Shown: one piece after another, positions 2,061 to 64,000 of the stretch
Layout of the letters: each line of letters opens with the position of its first letter
How positions within the stretch are numbered: the stretch's first letter is position 1
NCBI GenBank assembly: GCA_031213475.1
Contig: JARUPZ010000004.1
Coordinates: forward strand, 5,403,169-5,467,168
Direction of reading: 5' to 3'
Source: Nereocystis luetkeana
Taxonomy: Eukaryota > Sar > Phaeophyceae > Laminariales > Laminariaceae
Length of the DNA stretch: 64,000 nt
Notes under the pieces: model-generated
What the model was told of the DNA's origin: nothing
Database searches by the model: none
The model's input: the letters and a program-made list of their open reading frames with translations, nothing else
Made by a program: the position numbers and the translations under genes

Positions 2061-2162
2061 CTGCAAGAGTCGGCCTACGCACTGCCAGTTAGACTGGAGC
2101 AGTCAGTCGGAGAGCTTGAGCAAAAACTCCAACAAAATGTTTAGGAACATCCGGTTTCTCAC

Positions 2163-2599
2163 CTCTGTCAAGCTCAGCCATGTGGTGCCAGGGTTGGACT
2201 CGGAGTCGTCGAGGCAAACGCCGAGGACACCGGTTGCTTCCGTGGTGACGACGAACCCCTGATACCCGGACGTCGAACCGCTGGATTCGAGCTGGGCGTT
2301 GAATACACCGTCGTTATACACGTTGAGCATCCGAACATTTTCCGTGCCCTTGTAGAATGCGATATCCATCCCGACGATGTCTTGGGGTTCTGAGAGGTAG
2401 TACTCGATGCAACACCTCGAGCCTGCTTCGACGAGGTCACCCTTGCACGACCAACGAGAGTTCGCATCGAGGTTGTTGTCTCTAGTGTTCTCGGCGGTGC
2501 AGCCGTCTGGACGGCACCCGTAGCCGGACGTTCTCTCGTCGAACGCGGTAGCCACCACTGCCACGGTAGTCTTTTCGGCAGCCTCGACGGGCACTGGTC
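2163..2599 (-). CDS. Gene A exon 17: discoidin-like (F5/8-type-C-like) extracellular domain
   Basis: About 145 codons, open in phase 1 from the EGF exon, ending at a GAG/GTGAGA donor in phase 0. The sequence looks like a beta-rich, disulfide-bearing adhesive domain: GCRPDGC and ENTRDN early, WSCKG, RCCIEYY, DIVGMDIAFYKG, LNVYNDGVF, then GVCLDD and TTWLSLTE at the end. A mid-domain pattern of this sort (altered sequence at the protein surface followed by a description of change in shape or number) recalls discoidin/F5/8 type C folds and a Cys-rich domain common in brown algal secreted proteins; this family placement is from memory. The acceptor could be at 2599 or six bases further in at 2593; both keep phase 1. 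It probably binds carbohydrate or protein outside the cell, which is inference. Confidence 0.62.
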
Positions 2600-21298: not shown

Positions 21299-21329
<31 letters not shown>

Positions 21330-21932: not shown

Positions 21933-21961
<29 letters not shown>

Positions 21962-24050: not shown

Positions 24051-24123
24051 GTTGTTGCTGTTGTTGTTGTTGTTGTTCTTGTTGTCGTTGTTCCTGTTCC
24101 TGTTGTTGTTCTTGTTCTTGTTC

Positions 24124-28198: not shown

Positions 28199-28250
28199 AT
28201 GAGGTTCGCCAGGTTGTTGGCACCCATACTTCTGGCCGTGGCCACGACCG
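28199..28250 (+). CDS. Gene B exon 1: start codon and signal peptide
   Basis: ATG plus 16 codons and one base (MRFARLLAPILLAVATT, then G), donor GTGCGT. The basic N-terminus, Leu/Ile/Val core and small residues fit a secretory signal. Length and phase match gene A exon 1 exactly. Leader sequence upstream includes a possible acceptor TATCCAG at 28162-28168. Confidence 0.88.
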
Positions 28251-31200
28251 GTGCGTACCACGAAGCCTGAAGCTCGCGTTTACTTGTAACTCGCGGAGGC
28301 GCGTTATTGCGGGTATACTATGTGTTGGGCGCGATTTCAGATCTCTTCGAAGAGGAGAGGTGATTCGGGTTACATCACGAAACGCAGGCCCACTTTCCTG
28401 ACCCCATGCCTGAGATATGGCTGCTACACACCCTGGATTTGTAAACCGGCCGCCACGGTAGGAAAATACCAAGTATGTCGTTGGCACGCATGCATGATCG
28501 ATGGGCATGTTTGTTTTGGATCGTCCCTAGGCCGTTTGACTCTCAGTGATGTCTGATGTTCTTCTGCTGTCCCCCCGCGTCGATTTTCGGCAGGAGACAC
28601 CCGGTGTTTTACGGATGACGTGTGCACCTCGGGAACTACATCCCTGTAAGTATACCACATACAATACACGACATACTCGCGTGCAGAGTCTATTGCGTGC
28701 AGCTTCCGCATAGCTCGCCCCGTAGCTGAACGGTCGGAGGCGTTGATTTTCACCTATCGTGAACATCCCGAGAGAAAAACTTGCCGTATGCCACTACTTG
28801 ATACGTAAACGCCTAGAATTTGGTTGCCAATTCTGGCGAACCTGGTACTCCGGCGTCATGCAATCCGTGAAACAACACTCGGAAAAATAGTACCGCGTCC
28901 ATTGCAGTTGCTGCACGCCCAGGTAGTTGGTTTGCTGATTCTACGAAAAATGCTTCGCCTGAAACCCGAGAGTGGTATATGTGGTGTGTCGACATTGCAA
29001 CGGAAAACGTACAAAAATATTTTGCCGGTCCGCCTAGTTCGACTGCCAGCGCAATCTGAGCATGCCTTGCAGGGCTCAGGCACGGATACACGCGTGCTCA
29101 GGGCAATGATATGTACGATTCGAGCTGGTATAATTCGTCCGCCCGAACAAAGGGGGCGCTGCCGCGGCTGCTGCTACTGTCGTTTGCTGCATTGTGTGAC
29201 TGGAAACCTTTGCCCTGTGTCGCCCGTATTCCTGACCCGTTTCGTCTTGGTCTCCGGCGTCATAGATCTTGGGACCACCCACGGGAAACCGTGTTATTAT
29301 CTCGTCTGTGGGAATCGACTTTGGACAAAATTACTGCTCTTTTCGGTTGCGATCTAGAATCTCCCTATTTACACGAGTTACGGCCCAGTGGATGCGCGAA
29401 GCAACCCGAGGGGTCGTTGATAAACTCGAAGAGTAACCGACAATATTTCCTTTTTTAAAACTACTGTCCCGACTTTTCAAGGCCGTCTAATGTGCCGTTC
29501 GCGAACCGTTGGGCGAAGATATACCCCTATTCTTCAAGAGTCTAGGATACCTTGTTATCATGATATTAATAGGATGTCGACTGATCTGTCATGGCTATTA
29601 CGGGGGACCATAGTTAATAGGGCCTACGGTACACACAAAAACCTATATATATCGGTATTTTTGCTAACAATATTTGGTCCTATTAACTTTGGCCCCCCGT
29701 AATAGTATGTCGACCGGTTTTGTGAAGGGTTAAGCCTCGTGCGAGAGCGATGTAGACCACCACAAAGTCGGCAGGGGCTACGTAAAATTTGGGCTAAACT
29801 ATGTGCTATCGCCATGTCATCCACCTATGCCGCACGAATATATATATCAGTTTCGAGTCTTGGTCACTGCGCCTTCTGGGGTGGAGGGACCTGCACCTAT
29901 TGTCTAGTACCTATATTATCGCGAAGAAATCAACTCTTGGCTAATGTCATTTTTGGAAGTTTGAATGCGCAGTCCTCGCTTCAGGTTGGGGTTCTGAACC
30001 CAATGTAACGATCGAATTTTCCACCTAACCTAACCTGTGTCGAGATGCGAATAGTAGACAGCGAAGGTACGCACAAACTTGATTTTTCGTGTTACCTGAT
30101 TGTAGCTTGTGCTGCCGCCCTCTAACGATACCGTGCGATTCCGCGCGATGCTCGTCTGTTTAAGGAACTTCGAATCATGTGGAATCCGAGACGAAGATGC
30201 GAATGATCTTGCGGCATGTTTCGACGCCATAGGACGGAGCAGCATCGCCTCCGTGTGAGTGTCGCTCTCTCGAGGAGGCTACGTACCACAGCGTGTTTCG
30301 CGGGTTTACACTGTCTGCATACAGACGAGGCATGATCAAACAATGCCCGCTGGCATCTTCGTCGTCGTTTGGATGTCTCAACGAGGCTGAAACGCGTGAA
30401 CAGTATTGCGACTCGATCACGAAACAACCAGGGCACAAAACGAACAAAGCGATGAGAATAACCAAAGTTGTCAACCCTATTGCTATCCCCCCTCTCTGTG
30501 TACCGTAGCATGTAGCATACCATGGCACGTGTTTTCCAGAAACCATCAAAATTTTGCCAATACATGGTTATTTTGATGTTCCCGCCTAGAGGGTCTCTGC
30601 GGCTGCATAGAGGGCTGGCAACCGAAACCGCTCCACCATGGCTGAGACGAACGGCATAGGTATGGCCCAATCTGGTGAATTGTGTGATAGGCTGTCTCTC
30701 CTCGTATTTCTGTTTTTTGTACTATAGTAGGGAGACACGAAGGATGATCGCACTTTGAAGATCGCGCGAATGAAGCATATCATCGCTGCAAAATCTTGTG
30801 GGAAATGTTCTATCACCTGCAACGGATACCTCAGCAGCCTCAAGGACTGGGGGTTGAACTGCCCTTTGTACCCACCGTTTTGATCGCCTCGCTGTTTCAG
30901 AAACCTCAACAGGAATCGCCTCACCGCTCTGCCACTCGATCTCCTCGACGGCTTTGGGGCTCTAACAGATCTGTGAGCGACGCCTGCAGTATACACATGC
31001 CCTGTTTTTGTCGTGGGTTCGTAAACAAACTCGCGCTTGATATCGTCGAGGGTGTTGCTCGAGTTGTAAGGTCCGTTGTCGAATCTCAGCATGGTGGATC
31101 TCCGTGTGACTCTCAGAGAATATGCGATGATGTATCTGCAATCGTTTTCCGAAGTATCCGCTACGCAAGGTCAGATACTGTCTTGAACTGAGTTACGTTA

Positions 31201-34200
31201 CATATCAGCACGTTGTGGTCAAAGCTTGTGTTGTATGGTATGATACGTATGTACGCCGGCCTCCCAAATCGCTGGTCTGGAAATGGAGCTCCTCTCAGAA
31301 AAGAAAAACATTTCTCTCGGCGCGAGGCGGATTGCTTGGTGCGCTCTTCGCGGCCACTTCCTTGGCTCACTACAGCTTAACGGAGAAGGGGCGCTTGAAT
31401 AAGTTCCAGAGTCTGTCGAATCGTGGGCCTGGACACTACACAGATAACAAAAATATTTCAGCAAGAGTCGATATGGTAATGTTCTCCTGAGCCGTGTTTG
31501 ACAAACGTCGGAGTGCAGCGTACGGAGACATTGTGCAGTCAGTCTGCCTTGAACCAAACGCTCCGATCGAATAAAACATCAGTATATACTACTGTCTACA
31601 CGCGTTGCTGTAACGCTTTTTCTGCGCCTCTGCCGTAACGGGGATGCAGGACTCTGGACTTCAATGACCTCACCCTGCAGGCCGGCAACTTCAAGGGTGC
31701 CACCCCTCTGGATACACTGTGAGCGGGGCGCTACTGCAGCAGCATCGGCTCCTTCGTGTAGTCGAGTTGTGGGCATCGGGGAATGCAGTGGATGTTATCA
31801 TCCGTGAAACCTAGTCGACCAATGCAGAGACGCACTCCTGTCGCAGTACAGGGCCATGCCCAACTACCTACGATTGACGTAGGACACATATTTTCGCATA
31901 TTTGATATATGGTACGAAGACTGCAGTCTGTACGTTAGGAGACTTTTTAAGATTTTAAAACTGCAAGACAAACTCCCGCTAAAGCTGTTGGGTGGCTCGC
32001 CATGAAATTCTTTAGTGAATCTCTTAAACACTGTGTCATATATATGTGACGTTTGTTCATGGCGCTTGGTGCCATGTTAATCGCTTTGGACGTTCAATTT
32101 TCGTGGTCGCTCCGTCGCCGCCCCACCGCCGGCATGTCAATGGGCTGCAATAGGAGCATCCGGTTTAACGAGGTCGATGCCCTACCGTCGGGTGTCTTCG
32201 AGGGCCTAGAGTCCCTCCGCGTATTGTGAGTACGCCCCTCCTCAGTGCCAGTCGTGCAGTGCAGCGGCTCCATCAACGATGCTTTTAGATGCCAACAAGT
32301 TACCAGTAAACAAAAAAAAACATGTTGGTTCCTGCACCCACACTGGCTTGCACGTCCACCCACGACGCTTCGCTCGTTCACCCGAGCACAACCCAGGTAG
32401 TTTGTTCCATGCACCCAAGTCAAGATTTTGTCGGGGGCAATCGTTGTTTGTGTGTCTCTTTGCCTTTCATACAGCAGACTTGTCCTTCCACAACACCCCG
32501 TGGGTTTCGAAGATCCCGGCGTTTTCGGTTTTGCCGCCTCGGGTGAAGGTCGTATTAGCGGGACTACTCACTAAATTTTCGCGCTGTCGGGGATCCAATG
32601 TATCCCCTCTTGGTCCGCGTGAGGCACGGATGGACACATGCATGAGTGACACGCCACGAAATCACGGTTGCGCGGAGGAATACCGGTGTTCGCACCGTGC
32701 CTTCCGGCTACAACTTGGACTCGGCCGGCCGGTATCTTGGCCAATTATTTTTCAAGTGTACAGCACGTATTGTCGAGTGGGAGGCGTCGATGCGTACTGC
32801 AACGTGTTGAACGGATGCGGGATGTACCGAACAAGTGCACACAATCGCTGGACTGAGGCCGATCCTACGCACATGTTTTTTTTTTCTGGTATCTCTGGCT
32901 TTGCAACGTCTATTCCCGTCGTGAACCAGGAACCTTACTGCGAATCCTTTGACCTTGCTGGCCGGCGACTTCGAGGAAGCTACATCTTTGGAAATTCTGT
33001 GAGCATCGACATTTTGTATGACCGGATGAACGGCGGTAGGTCGTAGAGAGTAGAGTGCCAACGACATACTCGCTGTTATATGATCATATTCAAGCCCTGA
33101 CCGGCTATCTCTCTCTCTTGGCGAGGTACAATCCCCCCTTTGTTTTACAGCGCGCTCCATTTGGGGGCGAGCTTTTTCACTTTCAGAATTTTTGCAAATT
33201 CTTGACGAACCGCAAAGCAAATGCAGCTGTTGGCCATTCGAGGTTTTCAAGAGCCATTGTCGCAATAGCTGTCCAATCTCCAGGGCAACGCTAATTGCTT
33301 CTGCTTCGCGGTTCAACCATCGCTGTTGGTCTCGCTGCCCCCTCGTGGTTGTCGACTCTAACAGAATCCTCGATCGGATCATTCTGGAGGCCCTGCCATC
33401 TGGTGTCTTCGAGGGGCTGACATCTCTACAAAAGCTGTGAGTTTTAAGACTGCATGCAGTCTCGTTAAGGGGAAAATTATGGGAAAATTACGTGGAATTT
33501 GATTGGATTGTCCACAAAGCGGTACCGAATTTTTAAAGGAGTTAAGAGAGAGTCCTACTTCAACAGCGTCTTCAGCACGTACCCAAGCTTGAACTACAGA
33601 TGTGCATACTACATACCAGGTAGGTATGTAGACCACCCTGATGCCTATTTCCTTGTTTTTTCGTCATGTACGTACGTGGGCCTGCATGGTGACGTGCCGA
33701 TGCCCTGGGTTTGGAACACAGCCAGCCCTCCCCAGGTGCTTAGTAAGTAGTTGCGCCAGCCCGGGGAGACAGTTCAAGACAATGAATAGCTTACGTCCCT
33801 TTTGCTCGCCGCGCTTAGAGCCCTGCTGCAGTCGCCAACGCACGCAGGAACGCACTTTATGGCAAACTGTCTCACCTCGTCGTCAACTGCTGGGGTCTGT
33901 AGAGGATGTGGTGTAGGAACGGTCCCTGGTGCGGGAGATGGGGGATACTATTATCACCAAGTTCCAGATCTACAATTTAAACAGATCTACAATTAAAACG
34001 AAAGCGAGCATAGGTAATCAGGGTCATTCTTGCGGCTTTGTTGTCATTGACGAACAACCGACCTCCGGCTCCTGCTTCTCGTCCGCTGGTCCCTGACGAA
34101 CCAGGGACCTTTCGGAGATTGGGTTGCCTTCGTTGCCGGCAAATGCCTTCGTCGGCTTGCCGTCGCTTCTCGAGCTGTGAGTTGCCGCGATGTACCACCT

Positions 34201-37200
34201 GCTAAAAAATAATATAAAGTCACTCGTAGCTGAGAGGACAAAAAACATGGGAAACATACTAGTTTCACACATGTGTCTCTTCAGCTGAGTTTTCACGGAC
34301 CAGGCGGACTGTGCTTTCACCGAGCGCGAAGCAGCGTGAGATGGTCGGCGGGTTGCACGGAAGGGGGGAGACGTTTCGACCGAATGGATATTGACGGGTC
34401 GTGTGACCGGCTGGCAGCACCTGCGCAGAGGGTATCCGAGATAGCGGATTGGTGTACGTTTATCCGTGACTGGCTGTGCTTCTATCCGTGGTATTCCTAT
34501 GGTCGGGCGGCGAATGTCTCACGTCGGTGTTTTCACCCCCTCCAGTCTCCGGATACAATACCAGTAACCGGTGTAGGCACAGTTTGTACAAGCGTGTGTG
34601 ATTTCGCAGATGACTAAGGGTATTATGTCTAGATTGCGGCAGCACGAGAGTTGTAAACCTTGGCTATGCGAAAGCCGATCAACAACACTACGTGACATCG
34701 CGTTGCTCAGTGGTCACATGGTCACATTCACCCCTGCGGCGACACATTTTTATTACGGCTGACCGTGCGCTCCCGAGTTCGTATCTCGCCGCGTCTTGCC
34801 CATCACGGATCCAGGGACGTTTCGGAGAATTCTTTCACGACCTTGCCAGAAGATGTCTTCGCCGGTGCTCCGTCTCTGCTTCACCTGTAAGTACCAGCTA
34901 TTGTGTATCTGGGCCTATAGCCAGTTTACGGGGAAAAAATAGGGTCGACTTTCACGAGGGCTGTTTTTTAGTTTTTTTTTCGGTATTTTCTCCGAAATTT
35001 CGGTATTTTGTTTTTGTTTTTTCCGATAGGAAAATACCGAAAATTCGGGAAAACACTAAAAATAACTGAAAACCACTCCTCGTTAACCCCTTTAGAACCG
35101 CAGTCCCGTTTTGGGGACAAATTACTTGAAATTTGAGTGTTTTGTCCCCACATATGGGACTGCGGTTCTAGAAGGGTTAAGATCGACCCTCACCCGCAGC
35201 TTCTTGGAACCTCTTGCCCCGCTGGGGAACTATTGAATAGGTATGCAAGCCTGCCAAACAACGTATCGCGGGGCTCGTGCACGTCTGACCCGGACATGTT
35301 CGGCGGATACTTGTGGTGTGACTCGTGTAGGGCGACGACATGTTCGGAGAGTCTACGTTTCGTCGCCGACTTCATATCCACCTTAGTATGGTAGCGACCG
35401 TGATTGCGTGTTTGACCCCTGTGATTCATGACGTTTATAAGCCCAGGTGGTCACGTGTAACACGTGTCTGTTTCAGGCAAATATTAAAACTATTGTTCAC
35501 GGTGAACATAGCCACATAATGTAGCACGTGCTTCCGTTGCGATGCGATCAGACTCGATGGGATTACTCCGATTCACGCCGAACAACGTGTCTCGACCTTT
35601 CGTGCTCGCCGCCCTTCTCTGCATCACAAAACCAGGGATCTTTCGCGCAACCAGTTGCTCACGCTGCCGGCCGACGTGTTCAGCTACGTCCCGTCTCTTC
35701 TCAATCTGTGAGTCCGTCGTGTCTACAGCAGTTCTAGAAGCTTGTCAAGGACTGGATATATATATATCGTTAGTGAAAAATAAATGCACTGCCGAAACGC
35801 AGAGAAAGTTTGCATCGTTGCGTCTGAACAGGAGCGTTGCGTACTCTTGAAACGGTCTTCTACGGTAATTCTACAGACAGCGCGAACCTTGATTACATCG
35901 CGTTCGCTGAACGACTTATTTATATCATGTCTGGTATTTCATTTTTGTGAGGTAATTTTGCTTTGACGCCTCCCAGCTAGCCTCGACCGCTCTTTTTTGC
36001 CGCCTGTTTCTTTTCATCACAAACCAAGGATATGTTCAGTAACCAATCGTCGACGTTGCCAGCCGATGTCTTGAGCTATTTTCCGTCTCTGCTCACTCTG
36101 TGAGTCAGTCGTGACTGCATTGGTACAGAAGTTTATCAGGGACAGGATCCAGCGTCGGCAGAAAACGAAGGCAGTGCCGATCGTTGTATGACGTTGTCTG
36201 GTCGGGGCTAAGACATGGGTATTCGTCCTTGTTTTGTGACGATATTTTCCGCGCGTCCCTTTTCAGACGGCGCCCAACTCGATTGTGTGACTTTCGCAAT
36301 ACTGTCCGTGATTCAAACCTTGTTCATCCCGTCGCATTCAACTATCACCCTAATGAATTATTTGTGGAGCAACACCGCCATGAGAAAGAAATCTTGGCGT
36401 TGTGGTGCTTGTTCTCATTCCACGGTTGGTGGCATGCGACTTCGGTACACTCCATCCGCTAAAGCGCACTGCCCCCCCCCGTTCGTCGCATTTGTCCTCC
36501 ACGAAAAACTCAGGTGCCTTACTAGCAATAAACTTGACACGTTGCCAGACCTCGGAAAGCTGTCATCTCTGCTCGAACTGTGAGTGACCCTTGCGAAACG
36601 CATGAAGCCAGAAGGGAAAAAAAACACACACACTTCCACTCATAGACTGGGTATCTCCGACTCTATGCGAGGACTGAACTCTGGGCGTGCACACGCACAC
36701 ACCCCCAACGAGAAGGTGGCCACATGATCGTCCCTACGCAAGGCTTTTCGTCTCGGTATGCGTACCCTCTCCCTCCGTGTCTGCGAGAGATGTCATTCCG
36801 ACGTTGGCGTCCGCCCATCTTACGTCATGGTCCCACCTGAACCGTCTAGCCTGGTAGAGGGGTAAAGTCCGCCGTAATACGTGTATGTGGGCCGCGCGTG
36901 GTCGACGTGTTTCGGAATAGGTGCGCTGTGTTTCGGAACGTTTGCTGAAGTTTTGGGATAACATATAGTTCCAGTTTGTCGGCGTTAGTTGCATTCTGGC
37001 CACGCACGACGAAGCATACGCTTGTACCACCGCGTGCTCGAGAAACGTGATTGTGTTTCCGTATATGCATGTGAATACGGCGGGTTTATGACGGTACGTG
37101 GTAGAGTATTTTGTACATTCATCACATACAGTCGTCCTCCTTGCTCTCGTCTCCGAAACTCGGCTGAATGTAGATTCTGCCCCGAGTCGTTGTGATACTG

Positions 37201-43200: not shown

Positions 43201-46200
43201 GGTGGTGACCCATCCCTCGGCAGGGGCTACACGTTCAATCTCAAATATGTTGTGGTCTGGTGAGCGTTTTGAGTGAACACCTACGCTAGGTTGGTATGAT
43301 GGAACTGGTAACTGTAGAGTGTATTTTTGTTCGGACTTGGCGCATACAAACGTTGGACGGGTTGCTCCGACAAACTCCTCACGAGTCATGTGGGTCGGGT
43401 GATATACATGTCTCATCCTGTGCGGAGAGCACAACGGGAAAGGACACCCTCACAACGGTGGCATTGCTCTGAAGTCAGAAGCGTTTCGGCATGAATCCTA
43501 CTACCAGCACCACAACACATCTTTGTGCTTTGATCAATACCCATTGAAATGTATTCGGTTGTTCAAATTCCCTTTAAGCGATCCGTACGTCGGTGGGCAT
43601 ATCAACCGGAAAGACGACATACCACGTGTATATCACGTCTCCGAGCGCATGTGATCAATACCGGCGGCACTAGTATTTTTGTCGGCGACAATTTATTTGC
43701 CCCAGCATGCTTGTCGCACCCCACCCCTCTTCTGTCTCGGAAACCTGTCGTCGACATATCGCTGACGCCTTCGACCCCCTCGTTCGCCGCGGGTGCTGAT
43801 TCATCTCTGGGGGCATGCTGTACTCTCCCTGTTTACTATTACGGGGGACCATAGTTAATAGGACCTGTGGTATACATAAAAACCTATATATTTAACAATT
43901 TCTACTAACAATATTTGGTCCTATTAACTATGGTCCCCCGTAATACACGTTGCTGGTTTACCGCGGTAGAGAGCAACTGTTGTGTCGATCCGAATGAGTG
44001 CTATCTACAGAAGCAGATAGGTCGGGGTGCTTACCGGCCAGTCAACTACTACTGCATCACATCTTCAAGACATACGAACCCCTGTCGATGACCCCCCCTG
44101 GGTTGTCTCATGTTAAGATTAGGCCGCATTGGTTAAGCTGGGTCTTGGGGCCCTGTTGTAAATGCCCGTACTTCTATATTTGCAGTATGTCTGCTCTGAG
44201 ACAACCAATGTAACGGAAAGGGGGATGAAATCGACGATTACGGTACAACACACTGTCGTGCTCTCGAGCGTTTTGGAAAGGACGTGTTGACGACAGTTTT
44301 TTCCCATCGGATTGAAATGGGTAGCGGAGTGGGGATGCCTTCGCATACTTGTTTGAGACACCTGCATGGCGCTCGTGTCGCCGGAGGGGTGGGAGAGGTT
44401 CATGAGTTTGGCGTAAGCAGTAGCATGTCCGCTGCGTGGTTGGCTTCGCGAGGGCATTCCACCCATGAGGTCTGGCGTACTAGCGTCGGTACACCACCAG
44501 CTGCCCCGGTCAAACAATATTGTACTGGACTCAGCATCACTCAGCCATGCAAATCAGCGATGATGTTTTCGGCAATGGTATGTGTTCCAAACCAGCCGAT
44601 GTCGTCCGCCGGTCGACGTCTTTAGTCGAGAACTGGAGTGGCCCCTGGGATAGTGAAAATTCAGCGTTGATCAAAACTGTAGCGGCGAACGACGGTCATG
44701 TCATCGACACGTGAGCTAGCGTTACACGTTCTATCAAGTAGGCGAATAAGCGGTAATACCATTTTTACCTGTGTTTTACGTGTTGTATTACTGGGATCCA
44801 TATTAAATTGGACCTACGGTACTCATAAAAACCTATGAATTTCAGTAGTTTTACTAACAATGTTAGGTTCTATTTACTATGGTTCCCCGTAATAGCACTG
44901 CTGGCGACGGACATGCAGTTTCTACCGGATGCATGAGATATTCCTGTTAATGAATATCTTCTTCCGTTCTCGTTGTACTCCGCACCTCCATTTGGTCTCA
45001 AGGACCCGACATAATACAAATTCCCAGTCTGTCTGAAAATCTGTTGAAAATTGTTTCATCAATCTTCCGGCAGTAATACCAGCATTCTTTCTGATGTGGA
45101 CGGAGACCTATGGGCTCAACATGTTTGACACTCTCGTTGCCGTGGGGACTTGTCTTTGTTGTAGCCTTAGAGTGCTCTGCGACCTTACAAGGTTCAATTG
45201 GGAGATTGGCCAACACGAATTACGATGGATGTGACAATTAAAAGTACGACCGTCTTGGGTCGCCGCGATTGATACCTGCCAGTTCACCTTCTGCAGCGCC
45301 AGAAAGCCACGCACACGATCGTGTCTTTTGCACTGACCATTGCCCGTCGCTCCTTTCCCCCCGACAAAAACGACAGGGACCTGGCGTACAACGATTTCGC
45401 CGGCTTTGACATCTCTGCGCAAGCTGTGAGTGACTGTGAGATGGTGGAAGTGAAACGGTGGCCAAAACAAAAAAACGTCGAAGATGGAGCATACGTTCGA
45501 TTGGAATGGTACTGCAGTATACCGTGCAGCGTGCAACCGGGCAGGAATGTTAGTTCAGCAACGGCCCGCGTTTTCAGCACCTCTGAGCATGGCACTGGAG
45601 TAGTCCAAAATGGCTCTGTGGAGGTTTGCAGGAAGACTGGTTTCTCAGGTCGTCTCGAAAGTGACGGTCGGTTACCTGACGCCAGTATTTTTTTTGGCTT
45701 GTTCTTTCATTGCGGGTGACAGGTCGAACCTGCGGAGGTAGGCCATGCGGTCGACCCGTCTCCGGCGTTGTGGTCATTCGCAAGGGACGATGACGACTTC
45801 TGTAAACGCTGTAAACGGGACCGACAGGGTCGCGCTCCTTGGGCCTGGATGCCCTCAACGTTAGTCGCCGTACGTAGGTGAAACCCGTGCACGTGTACAA
45901 CGCCTGTTAATCGCTGTCTAATCCTCGTCCATCGCCTCTTCTGCGCGGCGATCAATCAGGTCGATTTTCTCCAATGAACTTATCGCCTTGCCAGCCGGAC
46001 TGCTGGATGACTTGGCGTCGCTTACGTCCTTGTGAGAAACACCGACAAAAACACGACCGGCCATGAGCACCCGTATACATCTTGTTTTTCGCAGAAGGAA
46101 ACATATCGTGACAGCATATAGTACCGCATGAGGGGTGTGATTGCGTAGTAGACGCAGCTGCTTGATCCCGAACCGCTTGCCCCCCAACGGATGAAGCCCC

Positions 46201-49200
46201 TCCGTCATAGGTCTATCTGGGTCGTTTCGCCTGCGTGAAAGCGGGGTACGACGCGTTGTGCCAAGAGGGGTAGCACATTTCCGCTGAAAGGGGTTTCCGA
46301 ATGACGGGGCTCCTTAACCCGAAATTGTCGGGATGCCAATCTTGTTTCGAAAAATGACGTTTTCATATACTTGGGGACATGGGATAACTCATCGGGAAGC
46401 AAACCAATTTCGCATGAAATCAGTTTTCGGGGGTGAGGTGGGGAGCTCCGAAAGTGGGAAGGGCCCGTTCTACAATAGAGGTAGCACATTTCCGCTATTT
46501 TTTGTTTATGAAAAGACGGGGTTCGTTGACCCCAACTCGTCGAAAAAAAACGTTTCGGTAGACTTGGGCCGTGGGGCTATTCGCCACGATGCGTTTTGAT
46601 TTTTGCTGAAGTCTGTTTTCGGGTGAGGTATGGAGCTCCTCAAGTGAGGAGCCTCAGAAAAGGTAGGGTGAACCTCTATCGTAGAACGCCTCGAAGCCTC
46701 AGAACAATCAGGGTGAACCTCCATCGTAGAACGCCTCGTACGTTCATTGCAGTGTTGATCGCGCTTTGGTCAGGATGCTCGGACGTCACACCTGGGGTAG
46801 CGGTTGGTAAGGGTGAGAGCATGATCGCTGCTTAGGGAAGGACACATGACACTCTGCTTGGGTTAGATATCTATTCCACCAATATGGGATACTGGATTGT
46901 GCGTCTGTAGCTCAGTTTGGCGTAATTTCCGATGTTTTCGGAGCGGGATTCAATCGGATTTGTCGCAATGGCTATTATTAAACAGATGTATGCGTCGTCA
47001 TATCGATTTTCACATTGCTTCCATGCTCGACAGATGAGCCCAAATCCACTCAGTATATAACGGAAATGCCATCGCCGTATGTGGATGCCACCACCCGCGC
47101 GAAATCAGGTCGCTCGACCGCAACAATTTGGTCACCCTAGAACCTGGGACGTTCACGGGAACGCCAGCCCTGGAACACTTGTAAGTGAAACCGAACACCC
47201 CGGTCACGTTCAGCGTGATCATTGTACGCTTCGCAAGAGCAGACATGTCTACGATATTCAACTTGCACAATACCGTGCAGTCTTTCGAACCCCGCCCACC
47301 AAGACTAGGCCGATATCCTACGTACAGTGTTTTACGAGGCAAAGCGTTCCGGGTGGCTGGGTGAAACGTTTGGCGTACCAGCAATAGGATTCGTCAACTT
47401 AAGCAGGGTCCTGGGAACGAGCACGCACCCCGGCCTCTTTAGTAGGTGGATGGGGCCTTAAACAGATTTCAGTGCCCTCAGTGTCCGAGTTCATTCGAAA
47501 AAAAAAGGATTGTTGGTGCAGATTCCCTCTTTGAAGCTACTTTATGTTGGGAAAACCTCGTCACTGACGCGCGTCATATACAGTGCTGTGCTATGGCGTC
47601 TACCTTCGGTGGCTTCACTCAACCTGTTCACACCGTCCTCGCGCGATGTGCTGACGCAGGGGCTTGTTGGATAACGAGTTCAGCCTGTTCCCCGCCGGCG
47701 CGTTTGATGGCATCGGCGAATTTATGATCGAATTGTAAGTAAAGGCCAACCTTCACCCCGTTGGGGTTTCGCTAGAGGTGTCGGTTCGTGCTGTTCCATT
47801 GCCTAAGCAGGGCATCAGCATGTTTGTTGCTTGGTTTCGCCTGCGCAGCTGCAGGAAAAGACGCAGTGGGTCGCTTTGGTGACGGCCGATGCGCGCAGAT
47901 ATACCTTTCGTTTCATTAGCTGGTTCGTGGAGACGAGAGCTCCCACTACCTTTGGTCCTCGTGGTATGATGCCTACCAGGTACCGGTACTTGGCATGGCT
48001 CGATTCCGGGTGTAACGGTCGCACCAAACAATGGTAGATATAGTGATACATGTGTTACTCGTATTACCGCCAAGATGACGATAGCCCTGGACCTGATAAG
48101 CTTCATTGCTCGGTCCGTCGGCTTTTTGTTGAAAATATTGTTACCGTTAGTACCCTGTCTGTAGAGAAACGAAGGTGCGGCACAAATTCATGGTGCTACC
48201 GAGTTTATATTTTTACGTTTAGATGGAGGCGAGGGTGGCCCACACTACGCCCGGCACCGCTCGATACTACGTTTTGGTTTGGTGGAGGTGTGGATGCATG
48301 CGTTGTGTGTCTTGAACAATACCGACGCCACATCCAGACGTCGTCGCCCTCGATTCCTACGGCTAATACGTCACATTTCTCCGCCACAGCGCGGTTGATT
48401 GGCGCAAGTACGCGTATTTTTTAGGGGTTACGTTTACACGGGTATCGTGTTTTGCCGTTCACGACGAGTTACCCACGCAGGTGTCCGTGACGGTACCCGA
48501 GCACGCAGATATATATCGAAGGCGTTTTCGTTAGCAATATAGAAGCAAATGCCTGGTATGTGTAACGGGTGGTGGATTTTGTGACTAACTCTAACGTGGC
48601 TTCTTCTGAGAAGGACGGGGGAAACGGACGGGGACCCAAATGTGTTAATCCGACGGTTGTATAATGTAAAATTTGTCGTGGCATCCAGTTTACAAGCCGA
48701 CCACTCTGCCCGGCCGATTATCGATGCACGCACGCCACACAGGAACATTGGAGGCAACCTACTTTCCGCGGTACCGCCCGAGATTTTTGACTACTTTCCG
48801 TCTCTCCAGATTCTGTGAGTGGCACTACTTTTGCGGGCATTCCTGCACCCCTGTGACGCCCCTCACGTGTTCCGACACATATAATGACACTGCGTTTCTC
48901 TCTTTGTTGATAAGGTCGGTTCATCCATCTCGCCGTGTGTACAAGCAACCTTGCCGCCCCCGGGCTCCTGCCGAGTTCAGGAGTATCGGTGTGGAGGTGT
49001 GGGTAAGTAGATTCGCTCCGGAGAACACCATATGCATCTCGACAATGTGAACTCCAGAGCCATACAGCTGTCCCCTTGGTGTGCGAAACGTCACGCAACT
49101 ATTTGCTGGGCTCACACAAAACCCCAAAAAATGCCTGGCATACAACAAGTATATGCAGAGTGTGTACCGCGACTTTTGCAGTCTCTTAAGTACGCCAAAA

Positions 49201-52200
49201 CAGGTTGTTTGAGTGGCTTCTCTGTCGCGTAATCTGTCTGCCACGGCGATACAGGTCTCTGTCCCAAAATGCCCTGACCTTGGAGGCCGGCGATTTTGAG
49301 GGGGCTACCTCGCTGGAACAATTGTGAGCGAGGCGCGAGGCGTTTTTATTATGTCGCTGTCTCGATCTCCGCAACCTCTGCGGTAAAAGAGAGTGGTAGG
49401 GATAGCGGAAGGCGGGGCATGTGCGGTAGGGGATTCTCCTGTCTCATGGTGCCGCTTGTCGTTAGCAGCAATCGTACATAATATTTCTTGCCTGTTCACA
49501 GGGCTTGACGTAATCACCGGGAAGTCGGAAAGACGATCTGATTTGTAGCTAGATATTTCCCATCCAACTCTGGTGTCGGTCCGCTTTTGTTATACCGGCG
49601 GTCACATGGCTGAGGTAACGCACCCATTGCGCGTTTCCCGTTCGTCGCTTTCACTCGCTTCCCACCCCCCGCTGACGACGCGATGCTGGACGAACATAGG
49701 CGCCTGGACAGTAACGACATGGTCGCCATACCGTTTGGTGCCTTCGAGGGTTTGACGTCTCTGCAAAGCCTGTGAGTGGGCTGTGAGTCAGACGTGCGTC
49801 GTGTATGAGAGAAAAAACGATAAACTGTATATGTACTCCGATAGTGGTATCTCGGGCATTGTATTATAAGCCGGGTGTACCCTTGCATGACAAAGTTCTG
49901 GCGTGGAGATTTGCGTCTACGCAGGATATTGATTAATTTTTTCAGCGCCAGATGTGAGTTTGTTCACGTAGCGGCCTCGGCAGTCTTCCTGTGATCGCAG
50001 GAGCCTACCCTCATATTGGCATTGCCAAGCCATACTGCCCACCCCCTTTCCCATCGCTGACCTTGGAGCAGGCTGATTCTCACCTGCGGAAGCACGAACG
50101 GCATTTCTGCCCCCCCCCCATACTGATTTTTTCGGCTTCGATAACGACATGCTTTGGCAATGCTCCTACCGCGTACCGACAAAGGGCCAGCTTCGACTGA
50201 AGCACTATTATTCCAGGCCTAATCGTTGCTTCGTTTCGTCGTCGCCGACAAGCAGTGCAGCCAACGTTGGTCTGGACGACGATTTCCGACTTCTGAGTGT
50301 CAAAGTGTTAGCCAGTAAACATTGCAGCCGGCGTTGACAGGAGGACGTTTTATGATATCTAAATTTCAAAAACAAATTAACAACATCTACTCATAGTTTT
50401 CTCCTTTTTGCCTATACAAAACTTTAACCTGTTGCCTGGTGGGTAGTGTCGTACGAACCCCGGGTTGGAAGCTCTGAAAGAAAGTTGGTTCCACGCTTTT
50501 GAGGTGATCAACCCTTGCAGTGCTCCAGTCCCTTTCTGAGGAGAAAGTGCTTGGAGTTTCGGTGGTTAGTCCTGAAAGCGGTACTGACGTTCCAGGAAGG
50601 TTAATCAAGGTGCTTTCTCTGGGCGAGTAGGGCCGGGGCTCACGACGCCAAGGGTATACCATTTTTTGATCAAATGCTTTCTGATCGACAAGGCTTCTCA
50701 ACCGAGGGGCCTACCCACACCGTCGTGGGTTTTACAAGCTCCTGGTCGCATTTTTCCCATGTAGACCTACTCCAGAGCACGGGATGGCTCCTCGGGACAC
50801 GTTCTACGGAGGGGCGGTCACTCTGGTAGTATTGTATTTTCATCCGCTCAGCGCTACTCGGCGGAACGACTACTCTATCGATTTTGCGGTCTTCAACCCC
50901 TGTTGAGCCATTTCTGTCTCCGCGATACGCATCGCTATGGGCTTCGCTGCACTTAGCTATTAGGCTTCGAGCCCATTTCAGTTGTGTGAGATGCAGAGCC
51001 ACTCGCTCTAGCGGACGAAATGCGTTATAGTGCAAATCGGCGCACCCCCCCTCCCGTAGCACCCGTCTCGACTGTAGGTGTATGTATACACGCGTTCTCT
51101 GAGAGAAATTTGAGGGTTGTATATGAAGGTCCTCAAATGCGAGGGACGTAAAACATATAGATGTGGTGTACCGCTAGCACCGCGTGTATCGCCCACCTGA
51201 GCTTTGATTGGAGTTGTCCCCCTAACCGCTTCGGGGCAGGCGTGAGGGAACGCGACAGATCCAACCCCGCCTAAGTTGGTCGTGCTCGTCAGAGGGATCG
51301 AAGCCAACGACGGGCTAAGTGCAGCCGAAGCTTCTGAGGCGTGGTCTGGTCAGTCGGGCGCAGTAAACGGTGTGCGACTTGTACAACCTCCTCTCGCTGG
51401 AGTCATCCCGTGATTTTCAACATTCGAAGTTATTTGCAGTCGATGAAAACTCAACTTCACGAGGGGACACTCCGTCAAACACGGCCAATGAGCAGCGGCA
51501 GTGCCTAGCCCTTTCCGTAGAAAAAAGGGGGGGGGGGGGGGGGTGTCACGACCTTAGCCGTCTGCGGATTGGCTAATATTTTCCCTCGTTGTATCTTCCG
51601 TTCGACTATTACGGGGGACCATAGTTAATAGGACCTGTAGTATACATAAAAACCTATATATTTAACCTTTTCTACTAACAATATTTGGTCCTATTAAATA
51701 TGGTCCCCCGTAATACATTTTGAAGCAAACGTTTCAGTCGTCTACGTGAGTCTATGTCCGCCCTGTGGATTAACCCAACCTGGGGAAATCCTTCGCCCGA
51801 CGTTAGGAATATAAATCGAGCCGCTTGCCACGTGGGTTTGGCACACGATACCGTGTCTGTTGGCACGTGCATCTTCGTCGGCCATGTCAGGGAACCCGGC
51901 AGATTTCTGCGTAAGGAGGGCAGCGCTCGTCGTGCACCCGAGATAGCCTGAAATCGTTTCGTAGGCTTGTTTGTTTTTGCTTACTGCGCCACCAGTGCTT
52001 TGCTGTACTGTGCTGAGACAGTTGAGGCTCGAAAACACCACGAAACATTAAACTGCTAAAATGGCTCGAAACCTTAAACTCTATGTTGCACGTACCCGGA
52101 TGGAAAGCCTGGTAGGACAGGTACATGGTGGTTCGTTGTGCGTACGTTTTAAAATACAAATACACGTTCTAGTTTCGTTCGTTCGTCCGACCAACTCGGA

Positions 52201-55200
52201 ACTACAGCACAACAAGATCGCCGAAACCTCTTGAACGTCCAAATTCATTTTACTCGAACCAGTACGTAGGGGTCTGATAGGACTCACGTTTTGTTGTCTG
52301 TTGTGTGTGGTCACATGACCAATATTTGTCACAGTCAAAATATAACTACCTTCGTTTGTCCAACCGACAGCAAACACTAGCAAAGGCAGAAAAATCCTTC
52401 GTGTCTAAACAAAAAATAACCCGTTACACGCGTTCGTAAGAGACCTTGTAGGGCTCGGATTTTTTTTTTGTGTTAGTTGTGTTTTTGTCACACTCCAAAA
52501 ATGTGTTGGATCAGGTGGTTCCAAATAAAAAAGACTGAATTTGGAATAGGCGACGTAAGCTTTAGACTGGATACAATAGTGCCTTTTCCCTAAGCTTGCC
52601 CTTCTCAACGCCTGCGAGGACGAACCTTCGTGTACCGTGTACGTCGAATATATCTGTTTTACACGCTCGGGCCCGAAAGCGCCGTGCCACGCGTCTCCTC
52701 TTGAGATTCACGTCGTACTCGATATTGCGGTGTTGGGGGGTGCATTCAGGGGCGTCCTTAATGTCTGGTGTATCCCAGCCCCATCGCTCGGTCTGCACGG
52801 CGCCGTGAGGCAACGAAATCGCACGGTGCGTAGAGAGATCATCTTAGGGGCGCTGCACACGAAGTACACCATATAGGTGTTTTTGTTCTGGAAAAGGTGC
52901 GCGAAGTATGTTCATGTATTGCGGTGAAAAAAAGTCGAGGAGGTCGTGGCCTTAACGTGACGGCCTTGTGGTCGGGGAATGGAGTCGATACGTGGCTTCG
53001 TAAACCATCGCCTTGCTAGTGAAACGACCACACACAGCCAGTAGAGTTGGGTCTTTGCTAGACCTTCACGAGAACTGTTTTGTGGTATTGGCTCGATCGA
53101 CTCCCTCCAGAAACATACCTAAGGTTACATCTGGGGGGACTAAAAACATCTACCGGCGCAGCTTATGCGACATTTAGACAACCTGTTGCCCGACTTGTGG
53201 ACGAGGATAACAGACATGAACTATTAATAATCAACGCGAGAACACAAATGATTCCGTGAGGATCAAAAGTTTTCGAATTTGCCTCAACGTCACTCCGTCC
53301 GAAGCTTGGCACCGCCAACGTTTTGTGGCAAACACGTGTACTTTTCCATTTCATTCCCAACAGCTGGCCAACAATTATGGTACGTGTGACATCCGTGCGC
53401 TACTGTACATTTCGTCCACCATGCGAGAGCTCGCAAAACACGCCTTCGTCTGTGTCTACGAAATGCGATGAAGAACTGGCTGTACTTGATGAAAACCATA
53501 CACTGCGGAACCGTACAATTTGAAGACAGAACATCCCGGAGCTAATGTGTGTCTTCCAGCTACCGCTGCCTTGTCTACGCGGGAAGTGTGTACTTTCTGT
53601 ACGAACAATATCCTCCCCTTCGTGCGTTCCCGCTCCCAGGAACCTTGGTTTCAACGATCTTACTTCCCTGCCGCCCGGTGTGTTTGACGGGCTTGGATCT
53701 CTGCAGGAATTGTGAGTAACCTGTTGTGCTGTGTACTGGAGCACGCGAAGTCTCCTGTGCCATTTTTTACTTTATAGAAATGGAGTGTGTGACATACATG
53801 GGCTGTCTACTTCCCGATGCCCTTACTTTCAACGATTGCACGCGAGTGAAGTACGACAGCAACCCTTATCCGCGGCGCTTGATCGGATACTCATATACGT
53901 ACAGATGAGGCATGCAATGTCATCAGAGTTGAACGGTAGATGACCAGCAGGCCAATGGTTCGTGTTGTTGCAGGCATGTAGAGTATTTCATACTGTTTCC
54001 ATCCCGACCTTTCCGGGGTGAATATTGAGCATTGTTCTTCACCTCTTTGCTGCAGACGCCAATCTCATGCCAGGCGGGATCTATCCCCAAAGTCGCGTCG
54101 AGGCGTGTTGCATGTTGTCACAGGCTCGAACGAGAGTTGCAGGTTTTATCCGTCCCCATATTTTGCGTCGCCTACTGAGCAGGCCTACGTCTTGTTGCAG
54201 GTTCAGGCACGTACGGAGCTTCCGGCTGTGCTCATCCGCGCGATGCGTGGAACGAAGGGCATTCTTTCGCATTCATACAGAAACGTACGATACGGTATTT
54301 CGGGCCGTATCTACCCGCACGTTTACCGAGGAGGTTCCTTAAGGGAGAAACGTATCGTTAGGTTGTCGTTCGTGGTTTGCTGTAGTCTTCGGCGAATGCC
54401 TAGCCGATGGGATTGATCGTAAGGACAGACGTGTAGTCAACGTTCATGGGAGACAAGAAACCCCCTCTAAAGCAAACCGAAACATGATAAAAAAAAAAAC
54501 GGGAGCTACACACGCTAAGGTGGAGATTCACCAGTGTGTTTCAGAGGTCCCTGCATCGCGGGATTGTAGACGTTTGTTCGATCACCCAACGACAGATTTT
54601 CGCAAATGATGAAGGTGGAACCCGACGAAATATCCTATGTGCTCATATATCTGAACAATATCGTATCGCAATAAATGTCATTCCGACGAGTTTGGGTCAA
54701 GGAGCGCCCGTCACTTCGAAATAGTGTGAACGACAACGAGCTAGTCATACTGTAGCACGCATCTCACACAATTTGTTTGCGTTTTTTCATTTCTTGGTGG
54801 TTCAAGTGGCCACTCCGGCCGTCTTGCAAACCGATGTTTGTCGCCCTCTAGCAAAACCATTTTGTTTCTGTTTCCGTCTCCGGTCATTCCCTTTATATAG
54901 AGTCCAACACGCCATATTAGCTGTCTCGCAAACGGTTTCGTCGGCCTCCTCTCAACGCCCGCTGTTTGCCGCTGTCCGGTGGTTCCGCCGCGTCCAGACG
55001 AATTGGCTGGAGTGAGCTGTCTACCCTGCCGGCCGGGTTGTTCGATGAGCTTCAATCTCTGCAGATGTTGTAAGGCCTCCTGTGTACCACCGACCCCGAG
55101 TGTGCGCCATGCCCCCCCGGCCCAACCTTTGCTCGATATCTGTGTAGTCGGGAGCACAGCGATATTTTTTTTGCCTGTTCACGGTTATCCGTTTTATTGG

Positions 55201-58200
55201 CGGGAGTGCGCACACGAAGCTACCCACAAATGTTCAATTCCGGGACGGTCACACGCTGTCTAAGCAATACCCCAGTCGTCTAGATTCCATGTGTTCCTGT
55301 ACCCGCTTTCTAGTAGCACACAGTGCAGACTCCCCAACAGGCTACCGCGACTTTCCGCGTGCCCATCCAGGGATCTGAGGAACAACGATCTGGTCACCCT
55401 TCCGGCGGGTCTTTTCAGGGGTACGCCTGCGTTGGAGACTCTGTGAGTGACTCGACTAACCAGATCGAAACCGTTTCACTTTTTGGTGACCTCTAGTTTC
55501 TTCTCAAGTGTAGTTCCCAGTTGTAGCCCTACACACCCGAGAGCTGCCCCCCCAGAGTGTTCCACGTGCCCCACCATCGTTTTGACGACATGGTATCGCA
55601 CGCGTCTGTGGGGAGAGTCATGCGGGGATCACGCGGGTCCTTGACCCTTCACGGTATACCGAGTTGAGGCTCGACCTGTGTAAGCCACGTTTGCTGCCGT
55701 CTCGACGTTTTGCCGGCGTTGGTGACGAGGTGTCTAATCCCTGAATCCCGGTGATGCTTGATTGGCTCGTGTATCAAAACGTTCAGTGACATTGCACGTT
55801 GTACTCGGGCAAGGAAGCAACACGTACCCCAGTCCATTCCGTGAACTCCTTTAGAACCGTGCACACATACTTTGATCGTATTTGCGTGAACGACCACTCC
55901 CCCTCATGGAACTAGCAAATGCCGTCACCTTCGGTGGGATCCCCTGGGCGCCTGACAGGTAGGTGCACCCACCGACGGGAATACCGGCATAGTGGAGTGC
56001 CCTTTTGTTTCGTGAGCGGGCGACGAGAGCTACACGGTATTGCGTTGCTTTTTTTGGCGAAACCGTTTCTGACCGCGGAGGCCCCTCCAACGAGGAACGC
56101 CACACAATATGTATCGTTCGAAAGACATTTATGGTCCAGAAATAGGCGTGTTTTATGTCCCTTGAGGCCACCGGGTTGGGGAGTTAATATCTCCTCGAAG
56201 GTAGTATTCGCGTGAGGCATAGGCCTCCCCGAGAGTCAGAGACGTCACGCATGAGTATTGATTGGTGCACCCTTAGCGTACTATATGTAGCGCCAACGTA
56301 CGGGTTTTGCTCTGTCTGCCGTGACGTTTTGTCGTGCGTTAACGACGTTGGTGCTACGCTGCGCCCTCCTTCTTCCGTGCTACTGTGAGCTGGTTCTCCA
56401 AATGCAGGCATGAGGTTGGCCGATGCTGTATTCATAAAACAGAACATTGATGCGTAATGTGGTTTTGAGCCTCTCAGCGCCCAACCACCACGCGATACAC
56501 GCCAGCATGGCCACCCTTTGTGCGTTTGTTTCGGCCTAAGGATCGCGCCCCGAGGCCTGCTCCAGCGTAACTTCCCACGCTCAGAATATTGCTCCTCCCG
56601 CTGGGCCGCGACCCGTTGTTATTAATCCCTAGTACCCTCGAAACTTGCTACAGTACAAAAAGCTACATGTTGTTGCTGTTTTGTTCTTACAACCACTGCC
56701 ACCATAAACCTGTTGCCGCCTGGACGCCGACGAACGCCAGCTTCACGTGCCAGCTTTCCTTTGCGTATTGGTTTACCGGTTTTGAGGAACCTACGATACA
56801 AGCCCCGCATAAACGTATTCTCCGCAAAGTATGTGTTGTTCACTGGAAGCCCTATATCAAACAGGTAATTGATCGCTTTACTTTGTCTATCCATTATTGG
56901 TTTTGTTCACTTAGTTTGTCTAGCATACCGCCGAGCGTCCTCTGTCAGCCGTTATCCTATGTACATTTATGTTGAGTACACCCCCCCCGCCCTCCCCGTA
57001 GTATCTCATACCACTACATCCAAGCACGACGCTGAGTACACCCCACCCGCTCCCAGTAGTGGTTTCGGCAAGGCACACGCGAGTCAGGTGCATTGCATTT
57101 CCTTTTCGCTGCCTCTGGAACAGGCCACACCGGAAGCTTCTTCAACGCATCCACGCTCTTGTCTGCATGCAAGCCTGCTTTACAATCAGTCCTCAGAAAA
57201 CATCAGCATACCCTTCATGCGGCTCCGATCACCCCACTATGGTTCGCCCTTGGTGCTAGAGCGATGCCTGCCTGATCGATAAAACCCCTGCTACATGCTC
57301 CGTCCCGGGATTGTAGGGATGCGAGGGTTCATGGTCATACCACTACGGCTATATATGATATCGAGTACATGCCCCCGCCTCATGAATGGATAAGGAGGGA
57401 CGCGATGTGTTGGAAGGAAAGATGGGGGAGCAGGAGGAAGTTGGACTAAGCAGAGTGTTCTCCTCTAGAGAGTAGCGAGAGAACGGCCTCCCTGCTATTA
57501 ACAGCAGATAGGTGGTGGCCACAGGCGGCGAAACGGGAAGGAGAAGATATCTGCAAATAATATATGTAAATGTATTATATGCAAAAACATGCTGCGTTCC
57601 CCCAATCGTTGGAGGTGTCTCTTTTAGACGTAGGAGCGGTGATCCGTCTCGGAGGGGATGCGCGGTCCACGTTCAAATGGCTTCGACAAAAGCAATGAAT
57701 GCGCACCCCCCCTCCCCCTTTTATTTTACTTTGCCTCCAGAGTGATGCGTGCTCAATGGTCCGATAACTAAGGCAGGCAAAGAGTGAGTACGCCCTACCA
57801 GCGTACTTCCCCTTTCCGTTCGTCGAACATTTTTTTTCCAGTTCTGTGTCAGTTGTTTCCGATCGCGGGTTGTACTAGAACTTCAGCGATGTTTTCACCC
57901 GTGACGGTCACGCTTTAGTTTGGGCTCGAATCTCTCTTCGGAACTACACAACGCCACGTTTCCGCTCCGAGGCAAAGCACCTGCAGCGTACACCGTGCTC
58001 TGTTTGCTTTCTTTCTGTCTTTCACTTGTGCTTTTTTGGTGCTTTGCGCCAGTACCCACGCCGAGCCCCCGTCGGCTTCCTGCTCGTACGATTGGTATAT
58101 GTATAGATAGGTAGATAGACAGAGAGGCGAAGTTTTGCCACATAAAAGCAACAATACGTGAAAGGTATCCCTGTATCTATGTAACAAACACTGCCTTTCG

Positions 58201-63907: not shown

Positions 63908-64000
63908 GTGAGTATTGCTCTGAATTTAGCTTGAACCTAGACGTACAGCAGAGGAATTTGCAACATGCTATGCGGGCCGTTCCGGCTCAGGGAAGGTGTT
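63908..64000. other. Probable intron start at window edge
   Basis: GTGAGT at 63908 is a consensus donor. The remaining 93 bases are open in the exon frame but lose resemblance to the family, so intron is preferred. Confidence 0.5.

What the first reader, a model, noticed from the sequence alone, without database searches (positions are those of the whole stretch)
30901..55442. Large array of symmetric single-LRR exons: a possible combinatorial receptor
At least 25 intact exons each encode one 24-residue LRR and all are phase 2-2, so any subset can be spliced in frame. Scattered decayed units and length variants show turnover. Exon shuffling of one-LRR exons has been reported for LRR-ROCO genes of Ectocarpus, but those are cytoplasmic GTPases; here the frame has a signal peptide, N-cap, C-cap, EGF-like and adhesive modules, giving an extracellular equivalent. 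The module size and caps recall lamprey VLR cassettes, as analogy only. Diversity by alternative splicing or by recombination between exons is inference.
Basis: partly seen in the sequence, partly recalled or inferred. Interest (0 to 1): 0.87.

Follow-up and report, generated by a model that had tools for sequence, protein, structure and literature searches.

The report
Secreted LRR gene, one repeat per exon
The stretch is a complete-looking alga gene for a probably secreted protein whose long binding region is spelled out one repeat per exon; it belongs to a clustered gene family in which the order of the repeats is largely kept between members, which argues against free shuffling, although no transcripts could be examined.

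Summary
Between 30901 and 55442 lie 25 intact one-LRR exons (20 of 72 nt, 3 of 69, 1 of 66, 1 of 75), all phase 2-2, and 2 decayed ones. They fit one readable 34-exon gene, 28199-64239 (1174 codons, no internal stop): signal peptide, Cys exon, N-cap, LRRs, C-cap, EGF-like and WAP-like exons, terminal exon. A divergent sister gene with 10 LRR exons and another terminal module lies on the minus strand (17782 to about 2160). N-cap exons match 39 places in the genome, nine within 0.7 Mb here. Exon order is collinear with two paralogues (0 of 1000 shuffles each), less clearly in shorter comparisons, and not for one pair. LRR exon pairs of other family members show purifying selection. This favours fixed secreted LRR proteins diversified in the germline by gene duplication, exon-block duplication and exchange of 3' modules. 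Combinatorial splicing is possible (all 625 joins keep frame and junction leucine) but has no direct support. Known kin: 72-nt phase-2 LRR exons of brown-algal ROCO genes, 90-nt ones of Tetrahymena. New variant of a known kind.

The parts
28199..28250 (+). exon 1, signal peptide MRFARLLAPILLAVATT-G, phase 0-1
   Evidence: like-placed exon in the minus gene; no signal-peptide program was run
28594..28645 (+). exon E1, DTRCFTDDVCTSGTTS, phase 1-2
   Evidence: like exons upstream of N-caps in other loci
30165..30254 (+). N-cap exon, phase 2-2
   Evidence: 39 matches genome-wide at E<=10 with the minus-gene N-cap as query
30901..55442 (+). 25 intact LRR exons, phase 2-2 (20x72, 3x69, 1x66, 1x75 nt)
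36028..36100 (+). decayed LRR exon (acceptor lost), duplicate of 35636
45377..45425 (+). truncated LRR exon remnant
58580..58621 (+). C-cap exon, phase 2-2
   Evidence: conserved in C4:5162801-5167060
59202..59254 (+). linker exon E2, phase 2-1
60591..60668 (+). EGF-like exon, phase 1-1
   Evidence: 83% identical in the paralogue over 30 residues
61924..61971 (+). linker exon E4, phase 1-1
62570..62668 (+). WAP-like Cys exon, phase 1-1
   Evidence: Pfam WAP E 0.0026, below the curated cut-off
63017..64000 (+). terminal exon (GDPHMTGF..., called VWD-like from memory), runs on to a stop at 64239 outside the window
   Evidence: no Pfam family
17731..17782 (-). minus sister gene: signal peptide exon MLFLKLLALLLSAVATN-G
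15617..15668 (-). minus sister gene: E1 exon
14436..14525 (-). minus sister gene: N-cap exon
7246..13839 (-). minus sister gene: 10 LRR exons (9x72, 1x75 nt), phase 2-2
5375..5416 (-). minus sister gene: C-cap exon
   Evidence: (E 0.002)
4782..4828 (-). minus sister gene: E2 exon
   Evidence: (E 0.024)
3999..4076 (-). minus sister gene: EGF-like exon
   Evidence: 76% identical to the + gene over 29 residues
3038..3085 (-). minus sister gene: E4 exon
   Evidence: (E 0.0007)
2160..2570 (-). minus sister gene: different terminal module (RWSC...); its 5' border was not settled
   Evidence: (no Pfam family above cut-off)

Best explanation
Two divergently transcribed members of a clustered family of secreted, modular LRR proteins in an alga (probably a brown alga). 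Each gene is read as signal peptide, small Cys exon, N-cap, many one-LRR exons, C-cap, EGF-like exon and one of two kinds of 3' module. Most likely all LRR exons are normally spliced in order to give one long curved solenoid that is exported to the cell wall, where its concave face binds glycan or protein ligands (own wall or microbial). Diversity lies between genes and arises in the germline: gene duplication, duplication and loss of exon blocks (harmless because every exon is 2-2 symmetric), exchange of the 3' module, and perhaps faster change of concave residues. Shown: exon anatomy, open frame, collinearity with two paralogues, two 3' modules. Inferred: full splicing, secretion, ligand binding, immune or wall role, brown alga.
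For: 34 exons join to 3525 nt with one stop, at the end; 17 exons of the minus gene join in frame. LRR_8 E=5.3e-105 on the spliced protein without its last part. Of 293 PDB sequences matched (60 shown) the best is an LGR4-VLR hybrid, then a designed LRR protein, acid-labile subunit, LGR4, LRRC15, LRRTM; cytosolic SHOC-2 appears lower. C-terminal exons conserved in order in a paralogue. N-cap: 39 matches; 19 of 39 have a terminal module of one of the two kinds downstream on the same strand within 45 kb, 9 of one kind and 10 of the other, none with both; two N-caps on C13 share one module, so 18 distinct modules. Exon order, number of 1000 shuffles reaching the observed chain: W-S 0, W-A 0, W-B 8, S-B 16, S-A 25, A-B 49. 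dN/dS 0.31 over 7 LRR exon pairs of other family members, about 0.08 for two N-cap pairs, 0.16 for this gene's terminal domain against a paralogue.
Against: No transcript was seen. The + and minus genes are only marginally collinear (W-M 52/1000) and S-M not at all (957/1000). LRR exon number differs between genes (10, 25, 26). The minus array's exons are more like each other (0.581) than like the + array's (0.523), a sign of internal duplication. Two decayed exons sit inside the + array, so loss of units is tolerated. Twenty of 39 N-caps have no terminal module of either kind within 45 kb downstream. The window's own LRR exons were not put to a dN/dS test, having no close partner. The gene models rest on sequence alone.
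Confidence: 0.68

Rival explanations
1. Combinatorial secreted receptor by alternative splicing: different subsets of the LRR exons are joined per transcript, as proposed for brown-algal ROCO genes.
For: All 25 exons symmetric; all 625 ordered joins (each exon to each, itself included) keep frame and encode Leu at the junction. ROCO genes with the same exon format show splice variants with different LRR sets (PMC11378527, sections 11 and 15 read). An LRR receptor diversified by splicing has been reported in a crab (PMC10045472, search listing with start of abstract only).
Against: Symmetric exons also follow from a one-repeat-per-exon origin alone. Exon order and the identity of end exons are kept across several paralogues, which is not needed if subsets are used freely. 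No transcript data.
Confidence: 0.2
2. Somatic or allelic recombination between LRR exons builds new arrays, VLR-like.
For: Unit and block duplications exist in the family, some of them very recent.
Against: The assembled gene is already complete from start to stop, unlike a VLR germline gene (recalled). Exons within the + array are no more alike (0.499) than those of the + and 5.58-Mb arrays (0.498), so there is no sign of homogenising exchange in the + array; the minus array is more alike within itself (0.581).
Confidence: 0.03
3. A reservoir of LRR exons or a pseudogene array without its own protein.
For: Teng et al. 2024 describe 15 non-ROCO sequences with shuffling LRR exons in Saccharina japonica, most with LRR motifs only, as a possible reservoir. 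Two decayed units here.
Against: Full open frame over 34 exons; caps and 3' exons conserved; purifying selection on this gene's terminal domain and on LRR exon pairs of other members.
Confidence: 0.06

Closest known systems
Brown-algal LRR-ROCO genes (Teng 2024, PMC11378527, outline and sections 11 and 15 read; Zambounis 2012 not held, known here through Teng and recall)
   Same: 72-nt LRR exons, phase 2, one repeat per exon, variable number
   Different: here signal peptide, N- and C-caps, EGF-like and other 3' modules, no ROC-COR; LRRs of the LPxGxFxxLxxL type; exon order collinear between several paralogues
Tetrahymena 90-bp LRR exon arrays (PMC6564038, passages read)
   Same: one LRR-scale unit per exon of fixed length, extreme phase-2 bias, large family with variable exon number
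   Different: 90 nt, ciliate; the architecture around the arrays was not compared
Gonadotropin receptor / LGR genes
   Same: phase-2 introns between one-LRR exons (stated in PMC11378527); LGR4 and LGR5 among the best solved sequence matches
   Different: GPCR with seven-helix domain, fixed exon number (recalled)
Lamprey variable lymphocyte receptors
   Same: 24-residue LRRs with caps (recalled); VLR sequence among PDB matches
   Different: VLR germline genes are incomplete and assembled somatically (recalled); this gene is complete

Membership tests
brown-algal LRR-ROCO | ROC-COR tandem domain | tested here: not met
   none in the spliced protein; PF16095 gave 0 matches in the whole genome at E<=0.001, though introns or divergence could hide it
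brown-algal LRR-ROCO | one LRR per 72-nt exon, phase 2 | tested here: met
   20 of 25 exons are 72 nt, 25 of 25 are 2-2
lamprey VLR | incomplete germline gene completed from flanking cassettes (recalled) | tested here: not met
   complete frame from ATG to stop
lamprey VLR | somatic assembly | not testable with these tools
   no somatic DNA
combinatorial splicing receptor (Dscam-like) | exons that can be joined in varied sets in frame | tested here: met
   625 of 625 joins in frame with Leu at the junction
combinatorial splicing receptor (Dscam-like) | varied transcripts observed | not testable with these tools
   no RNA data
secreted extracellular LRR protein | signal peptide, caps, LRR domain, no transmembrane helix | tested here: inconclusive
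   LRR domain and caps present; no 19-residue stretch with mean hydropathy above 1.48 from the N-cap on; signal peptide judged by eye and by the sister gene only
VWD domain (terminal exon) | match to the family profile | tested here: not met
   no Pfam family; the likeness of GDPHxxxFxGxxFDFxG is recalled, so 'VWD-like' is a label only
brown alga (organism) | photosynthetic stramenopile | tested here: inconclusive

The most novel reading that the evidence does not exclude
A clustered family of some 38 N-cap-bearing secreted LRR genes, with up to 26 one-repeat exons in those read, in which regulated alternative splicing of the symmetric exons produces a large repertoire of extracellular recognition proteins in an alga.
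Probability: 0.2. Interest if true: 0.9.

Novelty: new variant of a known kind. Interest (0 to 1): 0.55.

Why it matters
It indicates that the one-LRR-per-exon format known from algal ROCO GTPases also builds whole, probably secreted multi-domain proteins, in a large clustered family with two alternative 3' modules. That gives a concrete, countable set of candidate wall or immune recognition proteins in which splicing, copy number and selection can be tested, and it separates two ideas often run together: symmetric exons (present) and actual shuffling (here opposed by largely conserved order).

Tried and rejected
My first exon scan had wrong indices and found 0 (mended); searches failed on missing files or uneven rows and were redone. 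EGF by a simple Cys-spacing pattern found nothing useful; comparison with a paralogue did. Predicting the 3' exons from splice signals alone failed. Pfam on the raw frame 55300-64000 found nothing. A contig that looked like a second haplotype of a sister gene (C315) is 99.996% identical over 26,032 bases to C4 and gives no allelic information. Relatives of the + terminal exon were sought in viral contigs and of the minus terminal module in phage records, without a match. A ROCO gene was sought by PF16095 and not found. The 129-nt repeat family is an inverted-repeat element also present between the genes, so I rejected it as a splicing element. The genome search with the EGF exon did not complete. 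The concave-face test used rounded counts, was set up after seeing the data, and one of its seven pairs (A8-B3) may not be orthologous.
Full report
What is there. A splice-aware scan finds 23 LRR exons of score 7 or more on the + strand between 30901 and 55442 and one of 66 nt at score 6; on the minus strand, between 13839 and 7246, nine of score 8 or 7 and one of 75 nt at score 6. Its only other hits in the window are two poly-Leu ones at 24051. A DNA profile adds a 75-nt exon at 47660 and two decayed units. In 20 simulated sequences, one strand each, 72-nt exons of score 7 or more averaged 0.0 (other lengths were not counted in that control). All 25 intact + exons begin after AG, end before GT and are phase 2-2. 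The commonest residues of 29 exons of 72 nt give about LDLSGNDLTTLPAGxFDGLPSLRE, by recall the typical extracellular LRR class.

The gene around it. Comparing the two arrays by eye gave a shared N-cap exon, 48% identical. Comparing 55.3-64 kb with a paralogue about 0.25-0.3 Mb away, fetched just behind its last known LRR exon, gave five conserved exons and the terminal domain in the same order: C-cap, E2, EGF-like (83% over 30 residues), E4, WAP-like, terminal (74% over 155 residues). The first four were then found behind the minus array (EGF E 1.5e-11, E4 0.0007, C-cap 0.002, E2 0.024). Upstream, a small Cys exon (E1) resembles exons before the N-cap in other loci, and a 52-nt signal-peptide exon lies before it in both window genes with the same phases. 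Joined, the 34 + exons give 3525 nt and one stop, at the end. The last exon ends 239 bases beyond the window. Seventeen minus exons join in frame; the 5' border of the minus gene's terminal module was not settled.

The family. With the minus-gene N-cap as query the genome gives 39 matches at E<=10, some weak (to E 2.2), one of them (C993) repeating a C13 locus. Thirty of the 39 were cut out and read: all 30 keep the second Cys, 29 the first (L017 has Ser), and 28 are open throughout (L027 and L028, the same locus twice, hold a TAA near the end). Nine lie in C4:4.90-5.58 Mb. The + gene's terminal exon has 119 matches and the minus gene's terminal module 124, many of the latter in a separate array on C3. 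Nineteen of 39 N-caps have one of these modules downstream on the same strand within 45 kb, 9 and 10, never both; two C13 N-caps share one module, so 18 modules. Four N-caps have a module upstream on the same strand and 3 on the other strand (83 of 119 and 12 of 124 rows used). So the family carries two 3' modules, most simply explained by exchange.

Shuffled or ordered? The nearest relatives of the end exons are exons at the same place in other genes: LRR1 resembles the first LRR of four paralogues, LRR2 the second seen in two, LRR23 and LRR24 the last seen in four; LRR25 pairs best with the last of the minus gene. Many middle exons have no such clear partner. A chain test against shuffled order (one threshold, 1000 shuffles; 23 of this gene's 25 exons used) gives 0 versus the sister at 5.58 Mb (26 exons) and 0 versus the gene at 4.90 Mb (10 exons known), 8 versus that at 4.94 Mb (5 known); the other comparisons give 16 (S-B), 25 (S-A), 49 (A-B), 52 (+ versus minus gene, 9 of 10 exons used) and 957 (S versus minus gene). 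Here W is this gene, M the minus gene, S the gene at 5.58 Mb, A and B those at 4.90 and 4.94 Mb. Mean exon identity within the + array (0.499) equals that between it and the sister array (0.498); within the minus array it is higher (0.581, against 0.523 to the + array). Turnover exists: M1M2 and M3M4 are a duplicated pair (78 and 82%), S19 and S20 a tandem pair (74%), and on C40 a 338-nt LRR unit is repeated without a difference. This is the picture of ordered arrays with occasional block duplication rather than free shuffling, less so for the minus gene.

Selection. In seven close exon pairs of other family members dN/dS is 0.31; in two N-cap pairs about 0.08 (uncorrected); in this gene's terminal domain against a paralogue 0.16. 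The window's own LRR exons were not tested this way. Concave positions (4 of 24) carry 14.5 amino-acid to 5.5 silent changes, the rest 31.8 to 36.2 (Fisher p 0.04 on rounded counts): suggestive only.

What it works like. Best guess: a secreted solenoid in the wall, binding ligands by its concave face. The spliced protein (first 808 residues) matches LRR_8 at 5e-105; its best PDB sequence matches are mostly animal extracellular LRR proteins and designed ones. From the N-cap on it has no transmembrane-like stretch. All 625 ordered exon joins keep the frame and the junction Leu, so splicing in varied sets is possible and remains the most novel reading.

Known work. Teng et al. 2024 (PMC11378527; outline, sections 11 and 15 read) describe 72-bp phase-2 LRR exons in ROCO genes, with splice variants, and mention 15 non-ROCO sequences in S. 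japonica, most with LRR motifs only. The Tetrahymena paper (PMC6564038; passages) describes 90-bp arrays. The ECM review (PMC8307928; passages) names LRR receptor kinases in brown algae. In searches (listings with starts of abstracts) I saw no paper on secreted one-LRR-per-exon genes of this build in algae; the library lacks most subscription journals.

Organism. The genome (465 Mb) has 62 light-harvesting protein matches, so it is an alga; brown alga is inference. ROCO was not found by PF16095, which counts a little against a brown alga but does not exclude it.

Noticed in passing
window 17782-2160, minus strand: A nearly complete divergent sister gene with 10 LRR exons and a different terminal module, head to head with the reported gene (about 10.4 kb between the two start codons).
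   Followed up: yes
window 29583, 43824, 44773, 51594 (and 8305, 19291): A roughly 129-nt element with inverted-repeat ends, MITE-like, in introns and between the genes.
   Followed up: partly
window 21320-21528, 21946-22150, 24968-25172: A roughly 205-nt element in three copies, two of them 97.6% alike, between the two genes.
   Followed up: no
G000:C3:5.93-7.10 Mb: A very large array (dozens of matches) of the terminal module found in the minus gene, without N-cap matches on C3.
   Followed up: no
L054 (C40:500816-503872): A 338-nt LRR exon unit repeated, first two copies without a difference over 338 nt, a third only partly alike: very recent duplication or an assembly effect.
   Followed up: partly
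L059-L061 (C16:9.417-9.435 Mb): Three LRR loci at about 7.45 kb spacing, two 99.6% alike and the third 94-99% in pieces.
   Followed up: partly
C315 versus C4:5585469-5611500: Redundant contig, 99.996% identical over 26 kb, so counts over all contigs are slightly inflated.
   Followed up: yes
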